IMG/VR virus record: IMGVR_UViG_3300022701_000402
Span: 1-21,252 of that record
Length of the DNA stretch: 21,252 nt
Reading direction: 5' to 3' (one strand)
DNA from: a virus
Positions within the stretch are counted from its first letter, which is position 1. Every line of letters begins with the position of its first letter. A model generated the notes under the pieces. That model was given only the letters and a program-made list of their open reading frames with translations, ran no database searches and was not told the origin of the DNA. The translations under genes were made by a program, and so were the position numbers. Below are positions 4,472 to 11,714 of the stretch, one piece after another.

Positions 4472-6191
4472 CGTTTTCCACTCCTTCAAAGATGGCCTCA
4501 TCGTCCCCGTCGACGATGACGCGGATAGGGGCGAAGAGGACTTTCATATTTAAAATAGGACTGCCGGCGACCGTGCCGGGCAGCGCCCTGACATCGTGCG
4601 TAATCCCGCCGTAGGTCGCCGACGAAAACCCATACTCAAGGATTTTGTCGGTAATCGTGGCGGGGTCTTTTACGTATCCCCCGGCAGCGACCAATGCCTG
4701 CTTGTAGAGATCAACAAGGGCGGCGGTCGGCAGCAGGTGTTCGGGGGTATCTTTTACCGAGAACAGTCCTCCCCATTTCCCTGCCGCAAGGTTAAGATTG
4801 ACCAGACTGTGGAGCTCGTACCCGGCTGCGCTTCGATCCCTGACGTTTGCCAGCATGGTGTCGGCAAAAATCTTAGTTCCATCAGGCATGACCGGGAACG
4901 ACGGTAAAAATCCCATCCCCCCAAACGCCTCTGAGAGGCCGCTGTGCAGCTTCTTCGGGTCGGGCTCGGTGGTCGGGATGACGCCTGGATATACGGTCGA
5001 CATCTGGGGCGGGTACCAATCGTCTTTCAGGGCCCCGCCGAAACAAGCGCTGAAGTAATCAAAAAGCACCAGTTCGCCCCAGGGCGACATCACCGGCGTA
5101 CACATACCAACGTCATCGTTGCCGTACCCGTCCTTGACTGAGGTAACATTTAATATCGGTCCAAAGACCGGAGAGGCGTAACCGATTGCGTGGATACGCT
5201 GGTCGGGGTTGGGGCTGGTGTCCTTATAGCGATATGCCTGCACATTGGCGCAGGCGGCGGTCAGCGGGGTGGTCGTCAGATCAAAGTATTTTCTGGCCAG
5301 ATCCGAGTAGTAATCCTCATCAACCGTGCCGGCCGACACATTTTGGCTCAGGGCGAAATCAGTGGCAGAACAGCCATTGACATCGTCATAATAGAGGACA
5401 TTGGTATCGTCAGTTCCCGCCTTAAACCAAAAGTCCGGATGGAATGGGTGCAGGTAATAGTTGTTGGCAGCCAGGGTCGTGTTGTACCAGGTATCTGGAT
5501 CCGGCGGCACCTTTAGGGCGGTCTCGAGGATCGCGGCGCCGGGCTGCAACGAACCGATTGAGGTGTGCAGCGATCCGGCCCCATATTTGGAGGGGATAAA
5601 GGTTTCGTACCAGTTGATCGCGTTCTCGTAGCCATTGCCCTCTTTGCCCGTCATATCACAAAAGACTGCCTCCCACCCCTCCGTTCTTTCAATCTCTGAA
5701 GCAAAGCGGGTGGCTGAGAGAAACCCGATATAGGGGCAGCGTTTTGTGCGGACATCAACAAAAGACTTTGTGGCGTCATCCCAGATCCCGACCGCCACCG
5801 CGCTTGAAACATCGTCGCGGTTGTACCTCAAGAAAGACGTTCCGGCGTCGGTGTTGTCGGTAATGATGTCGACGTGGATATAGAACCTGGTGAAGACCTT
5901 CTCATTTTTGCGGGGCAAGGTGAGCCCCAGCTCATTTTTCTTTTCTTCCTCGTCGGCCCCGGCCTCTGGGGGCTCGGCGTGGACATGGATCTCCGCCTGA
6001 TTCTTGTGAATATTGATGCGTACCAGGGCACCGGGGACCCTTGGCTTGAGCACGTCATCCTCGAGTCGGCTGGCAGAATTCTCCCGGTCGCGCAGGTATT
6101 GCTCATACACGCGAAAGGCCTGCGGGACAAATGAGCGGGCATGCTCTTTGTCGCCACTTAGAAAAACCTGGATGCCTGGTTTGTTATGCAT
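4464..6191 (-). CDS. Unrecognised structural protein, aromatic-rich (575 aa)
   Basis: The ATG at 6191 shares its A with the TGA of the preceding gene (TGATG). GAGG lies rather far upstream and AGAAG close by, so coupling probably drives initiation. Residues 1-110 are charged, with a Glu-rich stretch (EAGADEEEKKNE). Residues 110-575 are rich in Tyr, Trp, Phe, Asp and Gly with many short beta-like segments (KCPYIGFLS-like, FDYFSACFGGA, NNYYLHPFHPDFWF). There is no signal peptide, membrane span or catalytic motif that I can identify. Size, composition and position in the tail block suggest a virion surface protein, possibly receptor-facing. This is inference only, and no known family comes to mind. 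Confidence 0.8.
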   Translation of the reverse strand: MHNKPGIQVFLSGDKEHARSFVPQAFRVYEQYLRDRENSASRLEDDVLKPRVPGALVRINIHKNQAEIHVHAEPPEAGADEEEKKNELGLTLPRKNEKVFTRFYIHVDIITDNTDAGTSFLRYNRDDVSSAVAVGIWDDATKSFVDVRTKRCPYIGFLSATRFASEIERTEGWEAVFCDMTGKEGNGYENAINWYETFIPSKYGAGSLHTSIGSLQPGAAILETALKVPPDPDTWYNTTLAANNYYLHPFHPDFWFKAGTDDTNVLYYDDVNGCSATDFALSQNVSAGTVDEDYYSDLARKYFDLTTTPLTAACANVQAYRYKDTSPNPDQRIHAIGYASPVFGPILNVTSVKDGYGNDDVGMCTPVMSPWGELVLFDYFSACFGGALKDDWYPPQMSTVYPGVIPTTEPDPKKLHSGLSEAFGGMGFLPSFPVMPDGTKIFADTMLANVRDRSAAGYELHSLVNLNLAAGKWGGLFSVKDTPEHLLPTAALVDLYKQALVAAGGYVKDPATITDKILEYGFSSATYGGITHDVRALPGTVAGSPILNMKVLFAPIRVIVDGDDEAIFEGVENDG

Positions 6192-6682
6192 CAGCTTCTG
6201 ATAATCCTCGATTTACTCTTCTTCATGACCCGCAGGTCAACGTGCAGCTCGTCGGCGATAAAGTAGGCGCCCCGGGCATTTCCAATCTCAAAGCTCAGAT
6301 ATGTCCCCTCGACCCGGCGATCTCCGCCAAAGGTAAGTTCCTGCCAGTTGCCGTCGTCAATCTTGGCGGTCAGTTTCTGCGCGGTGCTGCTGCGTCCGTC
6401 GGCACCCCAGGAGACGTTGACCGCCCCCTTGGCCCGAAAGCTCAGAAACCCGCTCAGTACCCTTTTTTTATTCTGCAGCCCGAAGTCATGTGCGACAAAG
6501 CGGGCAAAGGCTTTTATGTCTCGGCCGTTGTCATCATCAAAGCGTTCGGCCAGTTCGTAGACCCCGCCGCCGTCAAGCAGATAATGCTGGCCGTTAAAGG
6601 CGCACATTGAGTCGTAGGCGAACTGGTGGTACTGGGTGATGGCGCTCGTCTCAAGGGTTATTGCTAGGGATAGGGTAGCCAA
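6191..6682 (-). CDS. Conserved-type tail protein, probable C-terminal domain partner of the upstream repeat protein (163 aa, TTG start)
   Basis: Translation starts at a TTG (6680-6682), supported by a near-perfect GGAGGTGA six bases upstream. An in-frame TGA two codons before it rules out a longer protein. It overlaps the preceding gene by 19 nt in another frame. The sequence pattern is AYDSMCAFNGQHYLLDGGGV near residues 22-41, then YELAERFDDD, then HDFGLQNKKR and a run of beta strands ending in a basic tail (KKSKSRIIRS). From memory this matches a phage tail domain with the pattern FNS-aa-FNGxYY-aa-GLYEL-GDDD-aa-DFG-KR. In the relatives I recall it is the C-terminal part of a larger repeat-bearing protein. 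The exact role (tail hub or receptor-facing) is unknown. Confidence 0.8.
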   Translation of the reverse strand: MATLSLAITLETSAITQYHQFAYDSMCAFNGQHYLLDGGGVYELAERFDDDNGRDIKAFARFVAHDFGLQNKKRVLSGFLSFRAKGAVNVSWGADGRSSTAQKLTAKIDDGNWQELTFGGDRRVEGTYLSFEIGNARGAYFIADELHVDLRVMKKSKSRIIRS

Positions 6683-8058
6683 TCGTCACCTCCCGCCACA
6701 TTGGTCAGTAGAATTTCATCGCCGTCTTCAGCACCGCCGGCCTCGCCGGGGCTGCCGATCAGCACCCGCCCTTTGATGCCGATCCCAGGGATCTGTACGC
6801 TGCCCGAGACCACCATGTTTTCTGTCACGGCCCCGCTCATTCCAATCCCGGGGATCTGCACGTTGCCGACCACGTCAATGCCGACCGAGACGGTGCCAGA
6901 TATGCCAATGCCGGGGATTTGCAGGTTGCCGGCAACAGCAATGCCGTGATCGACCTGGCCGCTGATACCGATGCCGGGGATGTGCAGATTCCCTTTGACA
7001 TCAACGCCAATGTCGACGTTGCCTGACGCTCCGATCCCAGGGATTTGCAGGTTGCCCCGAACGTCGTCTATCCGGAACCCGGCGCCGATACCGGGGATCT
7101 GCAGGTCGCCCCTGATGTCGATCGGGGCCCCATACTCTTCGATGAAGACGTCACCAAGCCGGCTGTCGCTGTATATCCCCTTGATAACGATCGCCGACCC
7201 GGTATGGACAGTCGCCGCCACATCGCCGAGTGTGACCTGGTCGTCAAGATACACCTCGTCCTGGGCGCCGTTAAAATGAACGGCGTTGAGCACGTCGGCA
7301 AAGTTCAAAGCGTCGGCAGGTTTGGCATGTAGCCAGATGGTTGGTTCCTCGAGCGCCGCTGCCGAGGCGGCGTCATTTACCGACAGGGTTGCCATCGGAG
7401 CCCCCACCTGGAGTTGGTCGAGGGTCGCCTCGCTATAGGCATCGTGTGGATCAGCTATCAGACCGGGGTTGGCCGAATCGAGCGTCGACTTGGTCTGCAG
7501 CGGATAGACGGTGGCGTGATAGGTCACAAAGACCCCCGGCTCACCAAGCGCTGCCGCAGTCGCCAGATCGCTGGCCAAAACCGGGTGGAAGGGGTGCACT
7601 CCATCGACGGTTGTTTCTGTTCGCAGCCGATGCGGGACGGCATTAAAATGGAGTGCCGCCGCCGGCTCATCGAGCACCGTGTCGCTGGTCAGCTCAGCAA
7701 CCGCCAACATAATGACATCAACGACGATGACCGGCTCATCAAGAGCAGACACTGCGGCAACGGGGTTGACGAAGTCGGGGTTCTCGCCCCACGGCGGGGT
7801 GAGGCGGGCATAGGTCATGGCGCCATCGGGTGACAGTCCGACATCGATCCCGAACGGATCCATAAACGTCGCGCTGTCGAGCCCCAGCTGGCGCAGCGTC
7901 CACGGCTCAACGGTCGCGGTCTCGACCACCAGGTCGTCAACGGCGAGCATCACATCAATCGCCACCCCCGCGAGGTGTGCCGTTGAGGCCGCGTCCTGGG
8001 GCTGAACCTGGAAAAGTTCGTCGAGCCCCGCCGTTGAGACGAGCGCTTTAACTATCAT
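6664..8058 (-). CDS. Tail protein built of ~21-residue repeats with six IPGIG units (464 aa)
   Basis: The ATG at 8058 overlaps the previous stop as ATGA. The middle region (residues about 106-310) shows a degenerate unit starting Leu-Asp/Gly-x-Pro (LDEP 106, LDEP 129, LGEP 171, LDS 193, LDQ 213, LEEP 236, LGD 277, LGD 301) with a mean period close to 21-22. Residues 316-438 carry six sharper units, consensus GN-(L/V)-QIPGIG-(I/M/A)-SG-x-V-x5-V, 21 residues each except a shorter first unit. IPGIGI-type units are familiar from mycobacterial PPE proteins. Here the setting is viral. Such short Gly/Ile periodicity suggests a beta-solenoid or fibre. It directly precedes the 163-aa tail domain, with which it probably works. 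The final 25 residues are acidic. Confidence 0.85.
   Translation of the reverse strand: MIVKALVSTAGLDELFQVQPQDAASTAHLAGVAIDVMLAVDDLVVETATVEPWTLRQLGLDSATFMDPFGIDVGLSPDGAMTYARLTPPWGENPDFVNPVAAVSALDEPVIVVDVIMLAVAELTSDTVLDEPAAALHFNAVPHRLRTETTVDGVHPFHPVLASDLATAAALGEPGVFVTYHATVYPLQTKSTLDSANPGLIADPHDAYSEATLDQLQVGAPMATLSVNDAASAAALEEPTIWLHAKPADALNFADVLNAVHFNGAQDEVYLDDQVTLGDVAATVHTGSAIVIKGIYSDSRLGDVFIEEYGAPIDIRGDLQIPGIGAGFRIDDVRGNLQIPGIGASGNVDIGVDVKGNLHIPGIGISGQVDHGIAVAGNLQIPGIGISGTVSVGIDVVGNVQIPGIGMSGAVTENMVVSGSVQIPGIGIKGRVLIGSPGEAGGAEDGDEILLTNVAGGDDWLPYP
6686..6693 (-). promoter_or_regulatory. Strong ribosome binding site deciding a TTG start
   Basis: GGAGGTGA on the minus strand, with its GGAGG core six bases before the TTG at 6682. 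It lies inside the end of the upstream gene and fixes the start of the 163-aa tail protein, since no ATG in that frame gives a comparable site. Confidence 0.8.
6745..7113 (-). repeat. Six in-frame repeats (mostly 63 bp) encoding IPGIG units
   Basis: The codon following each IPGIG lies at intervals of 63, 63, 63, 63 and 54 bp (marker positions near 6776, 6839, 6902, 6965, 7028 and 7082). Units differ mainly at third codon positions (ccgatcccagggat, ccaatcccggggat, ccgatgccggggat and so on), so the protein pattern is conserved while the DNA has drifted. This points to an old duplication kept by selection. Confidence 0.9.
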
Positions 8059-9023
8059 GTGATCAGCTCCGATGGTTCAAGTTCGATCTGCACGTCGATT
8101 GACACCAGCGGCATCACCGTCTTGCTGACCAGGTCAAGTCCGCCGCCAGTGCTCTTTGCAGATATTTCATACGGCGACCCGGGCTCGCCGATGATCGTCA
8201 CTGAGCCCACCGTAGTCGCGTCACCGTTGGCGTTGCCGGGCACGTTGAGATAGATGCCGTCAATCGACTTGACGCCATAGGCCGCAAACACGATACCGCC
8301 CAGATCCCAGGTTATTTGTCGACCATCGCCATGATTGGTTTCGCTATACCCCAGTGATACCGAGGTGCCTGACTCGATATGCCCGGCGGGCGCACCGAGA
8401 AGATCGCCGCGCATCGAGTAAACCGCGTACTGAAAATCAAGGTCGCCGGTGAGGCCGATAGCTGCTCGCTCAGCAGCGCTGAACGGGGTATACATCACTC
8501 TGATCTCGGAGGGATACCCAGCCCACCCGTTCGGCGGGGCGATAATATACTTTGCCTTGTCTTCAGACCAGGGCGGGTACAGCGCGTCGCTGTCGGGCGG
8601 ATAATCGGTGGCGCCTGGCGGGACATAGGCGGCGATGCGTAATATATCGGCCAGTGCCGGCGAGACGGCCAGGACCAGCTGGAGTGATTCGTCGGCGTCT
8701 GTCCCAAAAATCCAGCGGTCGGGGAACCCCGAGTAGGTCTGCCCGTAAATGTCCAGGATTGGAAAGTACCCGCGGGCAGGATCGCCCTGGGCAAACGACT
8801 CACAAAAGGTCCTGCGACAATTCTGCTCATCAAAGTGGGCCTGCCCGTCAACCCCGCCGCCGCCGTCAAGCGCACCGGCGAAAGCGCTCTCAGGGCACCA
8901 GCCCTCCTGTCCGTTGGGGTAGATAAAGCGCAGCATCGGCCCTTGAAGGTTGGCGGGCCCTGCACTGAGCCGATACCCTGTAGAGATGAGCTGTTTCCAG
9001 CATATATTCTCAAGAAGTCCCAT
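8055..9023 (-). CDS. Unrecognised tail-module protein with N-terminal cysteine cluster (322 aa)
   Basis: The ATG at 9023 is preceded by AAGGA nine bases upstream, 12 nt after the previous TAA. All four cysteines lie in the first 75 residues (8, 43, 69, 74), in a Gly-rich region (a GALDGGGGVDG stretch near 50-60). The remainder is beta-rich with many Tyr/Pro/Gly (RWIFGTDADESLQLVLAV; PPNGWAGYPSEIRVMY) and ends in hydrophobic strands followed by EPSELIT. There is no signal peptide or catalytic signature. The position between the EPAYNC-domain proteins and the IPGIG protein suggests part of the same tail or adhesion assembly. I do not recognise the family. Confidence 0.8.
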   Translation of the reverse strand: MGLLENICWKQLISTGYRLSAGPANLQGPMLRFIYPNGQEGWCPESAFAGALDGGGGVDGQAHFDEQNCRRTFCESFAQGDPARGYFPILDIYGQTYSGFPDRWIFGTDADESLQLVLAVSPALADILRIAAYVPPGATDYPPDSDALYPPWSEDKAKYIIAPPNGWAGYPSEIRVMYTPFSAAERAAIGLTGDLDFQYAVYSMRGDLLGAPAGHIESGTSVSLGYSETNHGDGRQITWDLGGIVFAAYGVKSIDGIYLNVPGNANGDATTVGSVTIIGEPGSPYEISAKSTGGGLDLVSKTVMPLVSIDVQIELEPSELIT

Positions 9024-9035
9024 AAGCGACCGTCC

Positions 9036-9848
9036 TTATTTCGGCAACGTCAGGCCGACAAAGAGCATGCCTGATGCCTCTGTCGTACTGATTCTGAAGT
9101 AAATCCGCCCGGCGCTGCCCGTATTAAACGCCAGCGTGTTCATAAATGAGTCAATATCGCAGAGATGGCCAAGGTACTGCAGATCGTTTATATCGCCCGT
9201 CGCATAAGGATCTACGAACACCTCCGCGTTTGCTACAAAGTACCCGGCGTCACCCATGCCCTCGGCAAGCAACTCCATGTTGGTATCGGGGTTTGGCGCG
9301 TCCAGGTAAAACCAAAGCTTTTGTACGTTTCCGCTGCAGTTATAGGCCGGCTCATCCTGCTCAAGCTCGTTTCCGGCGCCGTCAGTCGAGGTCACAAAGC
9401 CGGAAAAACTCACAAAGATAGGGATGGCCTCAGTAAATGTGGTCCCTGTGGGGGTGTCGTCGCTGGCCTCAGCAATAATTTCACAATCAAGATCTTGTGC
9501 CGCCGTCACCCTGAACACCGCGCTGTAAATAGATGAATTAGGGATGGTAACCGCACACGACGACTGCCCGACCTGCCCGCATACCGTTTGCTGCAGGCTG
9601 AGCCCGGCAGGGCTGATAGGGGCAAACGGGTCACCGTCATAGAGAAAGCCTTCGCAGTTGAGGGCAACCCCATTGTGACTCCTGAAATGCAGCGTATAGA
9701 TAGAGCCGTCCGGTTCGTTGCCCTGGGAGGCAAGCCGAAACCAGCAGACCCGAGCGTTTTCGCTGGCGCAGTTGTACGCCGGTTCGCCGGCCTCCAGTCC
9801 GCTTGCAAAGCCTTCATTATCTACGACGGTGCTTAGGCGTAGTGACAT
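9036..9848 (-). CDS. Tail protein of two tandem EPAYNC-type beta domains (270 aa)
   Basis: The ATG at 9848 has AGGAG five bases upstream, and the site overlaps the TAA of the preceding gene. Both genes share one reading frame. The protein holds two copies of a domain of about 145 residues. Each starts with an EPAYNC motif (residues 22-27 and 166-171), followed by a W-F strand, a beta-rich middle, a second Cys in a short strand (90 and 230), and an aromatic strand such as GRIYFRIS. The same domain forms the C-terminus of the upstream 618-aa protein. The arrangement resembles pre-peptidase C-terminal (PPC)-like beta-sandwiches, but only in general layout. Eight cysteines in all suggest disulfides or metal binding. 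The role as an adhesive tail component is inferred. Confidence 0.8.
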   Translation of the reverse strand: MSLRLSTVVDNEGFASGLEAGEPAYNCASENARVCWFRLASQGNEPDGSIYTLHFRSHNGVALNCEGFLYDGDPFAPISPAGLSLQQTVCGQVGQSSCAVTIPNSSIYSAVFRVTAAQDLDCEIIAEASDDTPTGTTFTEAIPIFVSFSGFVTSTDGAGNELEQDEPAYNCSGNVQKLWFYLDAPNPDTNMELLAEGMGDAGYFVANAEVFVDPYATGDINDLQYLGHLCDIDSFMNTLAFNTGSAGRIYFRISTTEASGMLFVGLTLPK

Positions 9849-9853
9849 TGTCG

Positions 9854-9859
9854 CTCCTT
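9854..9859 (-). promoter_or_regulatory. Ribosome binding site overlapping an in-frame stop codon
   Basis: TAAGGAG: the TAA (9858-9860) ends the 618-aa frame and its last bases form the AAGGAG site for the ATG at 9848, which is in the same frame. The 9-nt gap after TAA would read Gly-Ala-Thr if the stop were read through. Confidence 0.75.
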
Positions 9860-11714
9860 ATAAATCGATTGCCGTGGCGATGCTGTTACCCTCACGGTAG
9901 CGGCAGCTGATGTTTTCAACCCGGGCATGGAGGTTGTGCGCCTGTCCGTAGTCGACGTTGGTGACGCGGGCATAGATGGCGTTGTATCCGGGGCTGGCCG
10001 GGAGTGAGATGACGATTTCCGGATCACCGCTTTGGTTGCAGACATGATCAAGATAGGTCAGGTCCGAGCCCTCTTCGGGGTCGGTGCCGGTAAACAGCTC
10101 GATATTGACTGCGCCGCCATAATCCTGAGAGACCATGAACTTAATATCGCCGTCTTTGAGCTCCACCCCGTCATGGGTCTGCAGAAGAAACATGAACCAG
10201 GTCCCAAAGGCGTTGTGGCCGCTGCAGTTGTAGGCCGGTTCGCCGCCGGTAAGCCCATCGTTGAACAGCTTAGAATATATCTTACGGCGGCCGATCAGCT
10301 GGTCATTGACGAAGAGCGGGCGGGCATTGAGTGACCCGGTGAAGCTGTCATAGTCCTGATCTCTCCAGAAAGCGGTCACCAGGTTACGGCCCGTCTGCGG
10401 GGCCTTAAACGCCAGTCGCCAGTAGACGCGCAGTACGTCATCCTGCGAGATGGGGACCTCAGACCAGATGCCCTGCTGGGTGCACCTCCGGCCATCGGAG
10501 GCATAGCCGGCAACCAGCTCACGGAGCGGATCGTCAAGGCTCTCTCCCACCAGCCAGAACGGCTCGATGTCGTAGTCAAAGCTGACATCACCGTTGTTGT
10601 CCTTGAGGCAGTAGAGCGGCTCGGTATCTCGGCCGCGCATGTCCTTGATCCGTGCGTCGAGCGGGTCGACATCGGCATAGAACCAGATTTGCTGATACCC
10701 GTCCCCAGCGCAGCTGCGGGGAGGAACGCCTGGCTCGTCAAAGGTGATAAAAGAGCTGTCGACGTCAAAATCCCAGACGACTTGTCTCTTTGTTGCCCCG
10801 TCAAAAACGCACAGCGCCGTGTCAAAAGTTTGACCCTCACGCATCCCCGACGGATGCCCCGGGATCCTGAGCGGATCACCGTTAATTCCAGGCCCGTCAG
10901 GGTAAAAGCCGCGGCACAGCCGCGTCTCTGGGATAGTCAGGTCGCCCTCTCCGTCATGGTGGCGATAGCTCTCGGCCGGCGGGTCGGTGATCCTGGTGCT
11001 GTCGGGATGGGTTCCCTGCCACCAGAATTCGTCACTGAAATCGGCCCGGGCGGCAGCGGGGCAGCCTGGTGAACCGAGCGTTGCCTTTTCCCAGTAAGCG
11101 TCGACGAAGTGCGGGGTTATGTACCCGTATTCGTTGGGGCGCCCCTCCCAGAGTATGTTGCCGGAGACGTCCCTGATGATCACTTTGGTACTGGACGGGT
11201 CGACCCCGGTCAGCTGGATCTCTTTGATCTTTTCTCCCGCGTTGAACACATCGTCAGGGGCGACATAGTTGACAACCGCAGTGCCCGTCGGGCCCAGCGT
11301 GCCGGAAGCATCTCCGCGAAGCGGGGGGAGCACGTTAATGGTTGAGCCCCAGCTTACGTTATGCCAGTTGGGGCCGAGCACGACCGAAACCGCAACTTCG
11401 ACATAGCCGCCCCCTGCGTCTGAAACTGAGGTGACGACTGCCGGCATCCTGAACAAAACGCTTTCAGCCTCGGTAAAGATGAGGGCATCGATACCGTTGA
11501 GTGCGGTAAAGGCCTCCCACTCGCCCTGGCTGCTGCCCGGTGATCCATAGCTGTCACCGAACAATGCCGACCACACCTCCCACAACGGGGTGTCGCCGAC
11601 AGCGACGGCGTGGCTGATCAGCTCAAGCTGCGATCCTTTAACGATGGACAGGCGATCAACGCTGTTCGTCTTGAACGACGAGACGCCTGTCCTCTCGAGA
11701 GTGTCAACAGCCAT
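9858..11714 (-). CDS. Large tail-module protein with C-terminal EPAYNC domain (618 aa)
   Basis: The ATG at 11714 lies 3 nt after the previous TAG. Residues 1-130 are a mixed region. Residues 130-215 contain a beta-rich domain (IKEIQLTGVDPSSTKVIIRD, then a GNILWEG strand). Residues 215-440 are rich in Asp, Trp, Gly and Cys (cysteines at 218, 267, 302, 335, 369, 411). Residues about 480-618 form the first copy of the EPAYNC domain (motif at 492-497, second Cys at 559), which recurs twice in the next gene. A CAGDGYQQIWFY segment near 335 may be a degraded further copy. The frame ends GNSIATAIDL, which looks like the first strand of another copy rather than a natural terminus. Probably a large tail or adhesion protein; family not recognised. 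Confidence 0.8.
   Translation of the reverse strand: MAVDTLERTGVSSFKTNSVDRLSIVKGSQLELISHAVAVGDTPLWEVWSALFGDSYGSPGSSQGEWEAFTALNGIDALIFTEAESVLFRMPAVVTSVSDAGGGYVEVAVSVVLGPNWHNVSWGSTINVLPPLRGDASGTLGPTGTAVVNYVAPDDVFNAGEKIKEIQLTGVDPSSTKVIIRDVSGNILWEGRPNEYGYITPHFVDAYWEKATLGSPGCPAAARADFSDEFWWQGTHPDSTRITDPPAESYRHHDGEGDLTIPETRLCRGFYPDGPGINGDPLRIPGHPSGMREGQTFDTALCVFDGATKRQVVWDFDVDSSFITFDEPGVPPRSCAGDGYQQIWFYADVDPLDARIKDMRGRDTEPLYCLKDNNGDVSFDYDIEPFWLVGESLDDPLRELVAGYASDGRRCTQQGIWSEVPISQDDVLRVYWRLAFKAPQTGRNLVTAFWRDQDYDSFTGSLNARPLFVNDQLIGRRKIYSKLFNDGLTGGEPAYNCSGHNAFGTWFMFLLQTHDGVELKDGDIKFMVSQDYGGAVNIELFTGTDPEEGSDLTYLDHVCNQSGDPEIVISLPASPGYNAIYARVTNVDYGQAHNLHARVENISCRYREGNSIATAIDL

What the first reader, a model, noticed from the sequence alone, without database searches (positions are those of the whole stretch)
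9036..11714. One tandem-domain protein divided by an in-frame TAA with an overlapping ribosome binding site
Seen: the 618-aa and 270-aa frames are in the same frame, separated only by TAA and three codons. The stop's own bases form AAGGAG for the next ATG. The EPAYNC domain repeats at about 152 and 144 residues across the border. The first protein ends GNSIATAIDL, which aligns with GTTFTEAIPI at the start of the next domain copy, so the break falls inside a domain. Inference: either an ancestral 892-residue protein was split, giving two subunits that complete each other's domain, or low-level readthrough gives a minor long form beside the short one.
Basis: partly seen in the sequence, partly recalled or inferred. 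Interest (0 to 1): 0.7.

Follow-up and report, generated by a model that had tools for sequence, protein, structure and literature searches.

The report
Phage tandem-domain protein split in two
A phage particle protein built from repeated sugar-binding-like domains appears to have been cut into two neighbouring genes by a stop codon that doubles as the ribosome landing site of the second gene; this is a neat but fairly ordinary case of gene splitting in a protein family with no relatives found in the collections searched.

Summary
Confirmed: two same-frame ORFs (618 aa = A, 270 aa = B) are separated by TAA plus three codons (GGA GCG ACA) in the structural module of a P22-portal-type podovirus contig, distantly related to KPP25 and AP1. 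TAAGGAG spans the stop and lies 5 nt before B's ATG. A and B carry four copies of one domain: r0 and r1 in A, r2 across the border, r3 in B. AlphaFold of r3 (pLDDT 75) best resembles carbohydrate-binding and clostridial collagen-binding/PPC-type beta-sandwiches. B's first copy starts about 10-15 residues late, and A's last residues resemble the missing segment; even the untranslated codons (G-A-T) match r0 in frame. Statistically this is moderate (P about 0.02-0.03 against all copies, 5e-4 against r0 alone). Best reading: an ancestral tandem-domain virion protein was split near the first strand of r2, giving two separately initiated, coupled proteins. Readthrough is unlikely (UAA-G, no RNA structure, strong start site). 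Mutual domain completion is possible but unproven. No relative of A or B was found in IMG/VR, phage records, Pfam, PHROGs, NCBIfam or PDB sequences, so a fused relative could not be shown. Gene splitting in phage adhesins is a known kind.

The parts
9858..11714 (-). Gene A, 618-aa virion-type protein; N-terminal 290 aa of unknown fold, then domain copies r0 and r1, ending in a 10-residue strand-like tail
   Evidence: no Pfam/PHROG/NCBIfam family
9036..9848 (-). Gene B, 270-aa protein: copy r2 without its first strand, then copy r3
9858..9860 (-). In-frame TAA stop of gene A, followed by G
9854..9860 (-). TAAGGAG Shine-Dalgarno sequence of gene B, overlapping the stop; 5 nt spacing to ATG
9849..9857 (-). 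Three untranslated codons GGA GCG ACA (G-A-T), matching in-frame G-A-T of copy r0
9846..9848 (-). ATG start of gene B
10341..10844 (-). Domain copy r0 (A residues 291-458), degenerate
   Evidence: 2 of 5000 shuffles reach its score against a profile of the other copies
9891..10340 (-). Domain copy r1 (A residues 459-608), EPAYNC
9861..9890 (-). Tail of A (GNSIATAIDL), proposed first strand of copy r2
9447..9848 (-). Rest of domain copy r2 (B residues 1-134), EPAYNC
9039..9446 (-). Domain copy r3 (B residues 135-270), EPAYNC; modelled as a beta-sandwich
10845..11714 (-). N-terminal part of A (residues 1-290), possible particle anchor (inference); no domain copy found in it

Best explanation
A and B are two virion accessory (probably tail-associated, receptor-binding type) proteins that descend from one tandem-domain protein. 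The ancestral frame was broken in the loop after the first strand of the third of four copies, where a stop, an overlapping Shine-Dalgarno sequence and an ATG arose within a few codons. Shown: the in-frame arrangement, the four copies, the strong start site. Inferred: ancestral fusion; that ribosomes which finish A, or load directly on TAAGGAG, start B, so both are made from one message as separate chains; that B then sits next to A in the particle, possibly with A's tail lying on B's first domain.
For: Same frame and 9-nt gap. Copies r1, r2, r3 recognised over the whole domain; r0 supported by 2/5000 shuffles without use of the junction. B starts 21 residues before EPAYNC, against 31-36 in the other copies, and A has about 14 residues beyond the end of r1. 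Read-through of the junction aligns with r0 across the stop, REG....TA....GAT, with CGT GAG GGT, ACG and ACA as identical codons and GGA GCG for GGG GCA. SD-type sequence 4-9 nt before ATG occurs at 11 ATGs on the coding strand, of which 9 are plausible gene starts, and at 1 on the other strand, so B's start is credible. A neighbouring virion protein in the same module, p163, is likewise a separate gene here but the C-terminal domain of a larger protein in KPP25, AP1 and MW202615.
Against: No fused or split relative of A or B was found, so the ancestral state is inferred from internal repeats only. The tail match is weak against all copies together (P 0.02-0.03), and the r0 match was chosen after the fact among three copies. 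The strand role of the tail is low-confidence in the r2 model (pLDDT about 40).
Confidence: 0.62

Rival explanations
1. A and B were never one chain: B arose as a tandem duplicate of A's C-terminal domains, the frame match is the 1-in-3 chance, and A's tail is a short extension with no domain role.
For: Four of the window's junctions are in the same frame; tail resemblance reached by 2-3% of controls; C-termini of two other window proteins score as high against the copy starts.
Against: B's first copy lacks the N-terminal segment that r0, r1 and r3 have, and the untranslated G-A-T codons match r0 in frame.
Confidence: 0.22
2. Programmed or leaky readthrough of the TAA gives a minor 892-residue fused form beside A.
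For: The frame is open through to B's stop, and the read-through copy r2 is modelled as a beta-sandwich domain.
Against: UAA is read by both release factors and UAA-G is a strong terminator context (general knowledge); TAA is used as an ordinary stop by other genes of the window; no stable RNA element at the junction, z = +0.7; B has its own strong start.
Confidence: 0.05
3. The stop is an assembly or sequencing error, or a fresh nonsense mutation in a single gene.
For: Single metagenomic contig; the only near-identical record found (L003) does not reach this region.
Against: A random stop would not bring TAAGGAG and an in-frame ATG at 5 nt; unexplained SD+ATG pairs number about 2 on the coding strand of the whole window.
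Confidence: 0.06

Closest known systems
Phage lambda stf in the PaPa laboratory strain (ORF401/ORF314) versus intact stf of Ur-lambda (PMC9659904)
   Same: One phage adhesin reading frame divided into two adjacent frames
   Different: There by a frameshift in the laboratory lineage, with loss of the fibres; here an in-frame stop with a strong start site for the second protein, so both products look functional
PPC / collagen-binding domain of clostridial collagenases (PDB 3jqw, 1nqd, 2o8o; Pfam PF04151)
   Same: Predicted beta-sandwich topology (3jqw_C: TM 0.62 by query, 0.71 by target, 139 columns), an N-terminal segment before the domain core (mobile in ColG, PMC4356367), tandem copies
   Different: 13% identity; PF04151 and all Pfam models silent even at E = 10; calcium sites not tested; copies here share EPAYNC and a second invariant Cys
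Structural modules of Kochitakasuvirus KPP25, Acidovorax phage AP1 and MW202615
   Same: Portal, major capsid, head-closure, p160- and p163-like proteins in related gene order
   Different: No homologue of A or B in them; p163 is fused to a larger protein there

Membership tests
Split (fissioned) phage virion gene | Two adjacent frames that together equal one ancestral protein | tested here: inconclusive
   Internal copies and junction codons support it; no fused relative found
Split (fissioned) phage virion gene | Second part has its own start site | tested here: met
   TAAGGAG at 5 nt from ATG; 9 of 11 such sites on the coding strand are plausible gene starts; expression itself not measured
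Split (fissioned) phage virion gene | Break falls inside a domain, not at its edge | tested here: inconclusive
   B's first copy is short by 10-15 residues; tail match P 0.02-0.03, r0-only 5e-4
PPC / collagen-binding domain family (PF04151) | Match to the family profile | tested here: not met
   No match at E = 10 in the window, none for any copy
PPC / collagen-binding domain family (PF04151) | Beta-sandwich fold of the collagen-binding domain | tested here: inconclusive
   Predicted r3 model only: Foldseek probability 1.00, TM up to 0.62/0.71, E 2e-4 to 1e-3, but other beta-sandwich families score alike
PPC / collagen-binding domain family (PF04151) | Calcium-binding residues at the N-terminal linker | not tested
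   Coordinates were not examined
Programmed readthrough protein | Leaky stop context or stimulatory RNA element | tested here: not met
   UAA-G, no unusual structure
Programmed readthrough protein | Fused product is made | not testable with these tools
   Needs protein data

The most novel reading that the evidence does not exclude
The split created an obligate pair: A's C-terminal strand inserts into B's truncated first domain, so two chains from one cut frame share one fold in the particle, with the stop codon, ribosome site and linker all derived from former coding codons by point changes.
Probability: 0.18. Interest if true: 0.55.

Novelty: new member of a known kind. Interest (0 to 1): 0.33.

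Why it matters
If confirmed, it would be a clean example of how a phage turns one modular surface protein into two coupled subunits through a few codons, with the former coding loop now serving as stop and ribosome site. The protein family itself is an orphan and may be a new receptor-binding or decoration protein of KPP25-like podoviruses. Otherwise it is an ordinary compact gene junction.

Tried and rejected
Single-sequence scans of IMG/VR for A, B, p322 and p575, a repeat-profile scan, and EPAYNC..WF and EPxYNC..WF DNA patterns in IMG/VR and (the first) GTDB genomes: the few hits were judged chance. tblastn of A, B and p322 in phage records: none. Whole records of 12 relatives with the repeat profile and with A: none. 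PDB sequence search: only gp30 of 8qpg at E = 0.13, not significant. A fifth copy in A residues 150-290 was suspected by eye and rejected. Tandem-row alignments for folding (A2, A3, A5) were misaligned in part and not used for models. Foldseek with the weaker r2 model gave only TM below 0.5. Literature searches gave the lambda stf precedent only.

Full report
What is there. The window is a 21,252-base IMG/VR virus record. Its minus strand carries a podovirus structural module: TerL, a P22-type portal (PF16510, 5e-90), scaffold, major capsid protein, head-closure protein, and tail genes. By portal and capsid the nearest named phages are Acidovorax phage AP1 (39-48%) and Pseudomonas phages KPP25/phiR18 (34-42%). 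Gene A (618 aa, 9858-11714) and gene B (270 aa, 9036-9848) lie between p132 and p322, in the part of the module that differs between relatives.

The junction. On the minus strand it reads ATC GAT TTA TAA GGA GCG ACA ATG. The stop, three codons and the ATG are in one frame, as reported. TAAGGAG is followed after 5 nt by ATG. Among AGGAG/GGAGG-type sequences 4-9 nt before an ATG, the coding strand has 11 sites and 9 of them are plausible gene starts, including those of head genes; the opposite strand has 1. B's start is therefore credible. Overlap of the ribosome site with the upstream stop is not special: it also occurs at head-closure/p160 and at B/p322.

The domain. r1, r2 and r3 share EPAYNC, a WF pair 7-8 residues later, a DP motif and a second Cys. 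A fourth, diverged copy r0 lies at A 291-458: 2 of 5000 shuffles reach its score against a profile of the others, and no other stretch of window protein comes near (8.7 against 0.7 bits). AlphaFold on the four copies gives beta-sandwiches: r3 mean pLDDT 75, pTM 0.75; read-through r2 63.9, 0.66. Foldseek with r3 places carbohydrate-binding modules and clostridial collagen-binding domains near the top (E 2e-4 to 1e-3; 3jqw_C TM 0.62/0.71). Sequence profiles, including PF04151, do not see it, so it is PPC-like in predicted fold, not a shown member.

Does the break fall inside a domain? B begins 21 residues before EPAYNC, while the other copies have 31-36 residues of domain before theirs, and A runs about 14 residues past the end of r1. 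A's tail aligns with the starts of the other copies, but weakly: 1.9-3.4% of controls do as well, and it adds 2 bits to a profile built without r2, as do 2.3-3.1% of controls. The best single match is to r0, across the stop: REGQTFDTALCVFDGAT against REGNSIATAIDL-*GAT, 10 of 20,000 shuffles, with CGT GAG GGT, ACG and ACA identical as codons. Allowing for the choice among three copies, this is about P = 0.0015. I take fission inside r2 as likely, not proven.

How it works. The economical model is two proteins from one message, with B started by reinitiation or directly at TAAGGAG (inference). In ColG the linker before the second collagen-binding domain changes between helix and strand on calcium binding (PMC4356367), so a domain of this type may well fold without its first segment; this would make B viable alone and leave mutual completion optional. 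Readthrough has little support: UAA-G, no RNA element, TAA used as a normal stop elsewhere.

Relatives. None of A or B was found in any collection searched. This is the main gap: fusion in a relative, the decisive evidence, could not be tested. Supporting context is that p163, downstream of B in the same module, is a separate gene in the window, L005, L007 and L014 but a C-terminal domain in KPP25, AP1 and MW202615, so splitting or joining of virion genes happens in this module.

Verdict. The kind is known (lambda stf, PMC9659904); the protein family is an orphan.

Noticed in passing
6191-6682 (-): p163 is a separate gene here and in L005, L007, L014, but the same domain is the C-terminal ~155 residues of larger virion proteins in KPP25 (ORF005), AP1 and MW202615.
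   Followed up: yes
9023-9036 (-): The next junction, B/p322, is also in the same frame with TAAGGA overlapping the stop; p322 shows no copy of the domain.
   Followed up: partly
6664-8058 (-): p464 carries a series of GNLQIPGIGISG-type repeats near its C-terminus.
   Followed up: no
4471, 16211, 17548 (-): Strong ribosome sites precede internal ATGs of the tail 520-aa, major capsid and scaffold frames, so these are probably the true starts rather than the first start codons of the frames.
   Followed up: partly
9036-10844 (-): Two cysteines (in EPAYNC and about 60-75 residues later) are invariant in all four domain copies, a possible disulfide or metal site.
   Followed up: no
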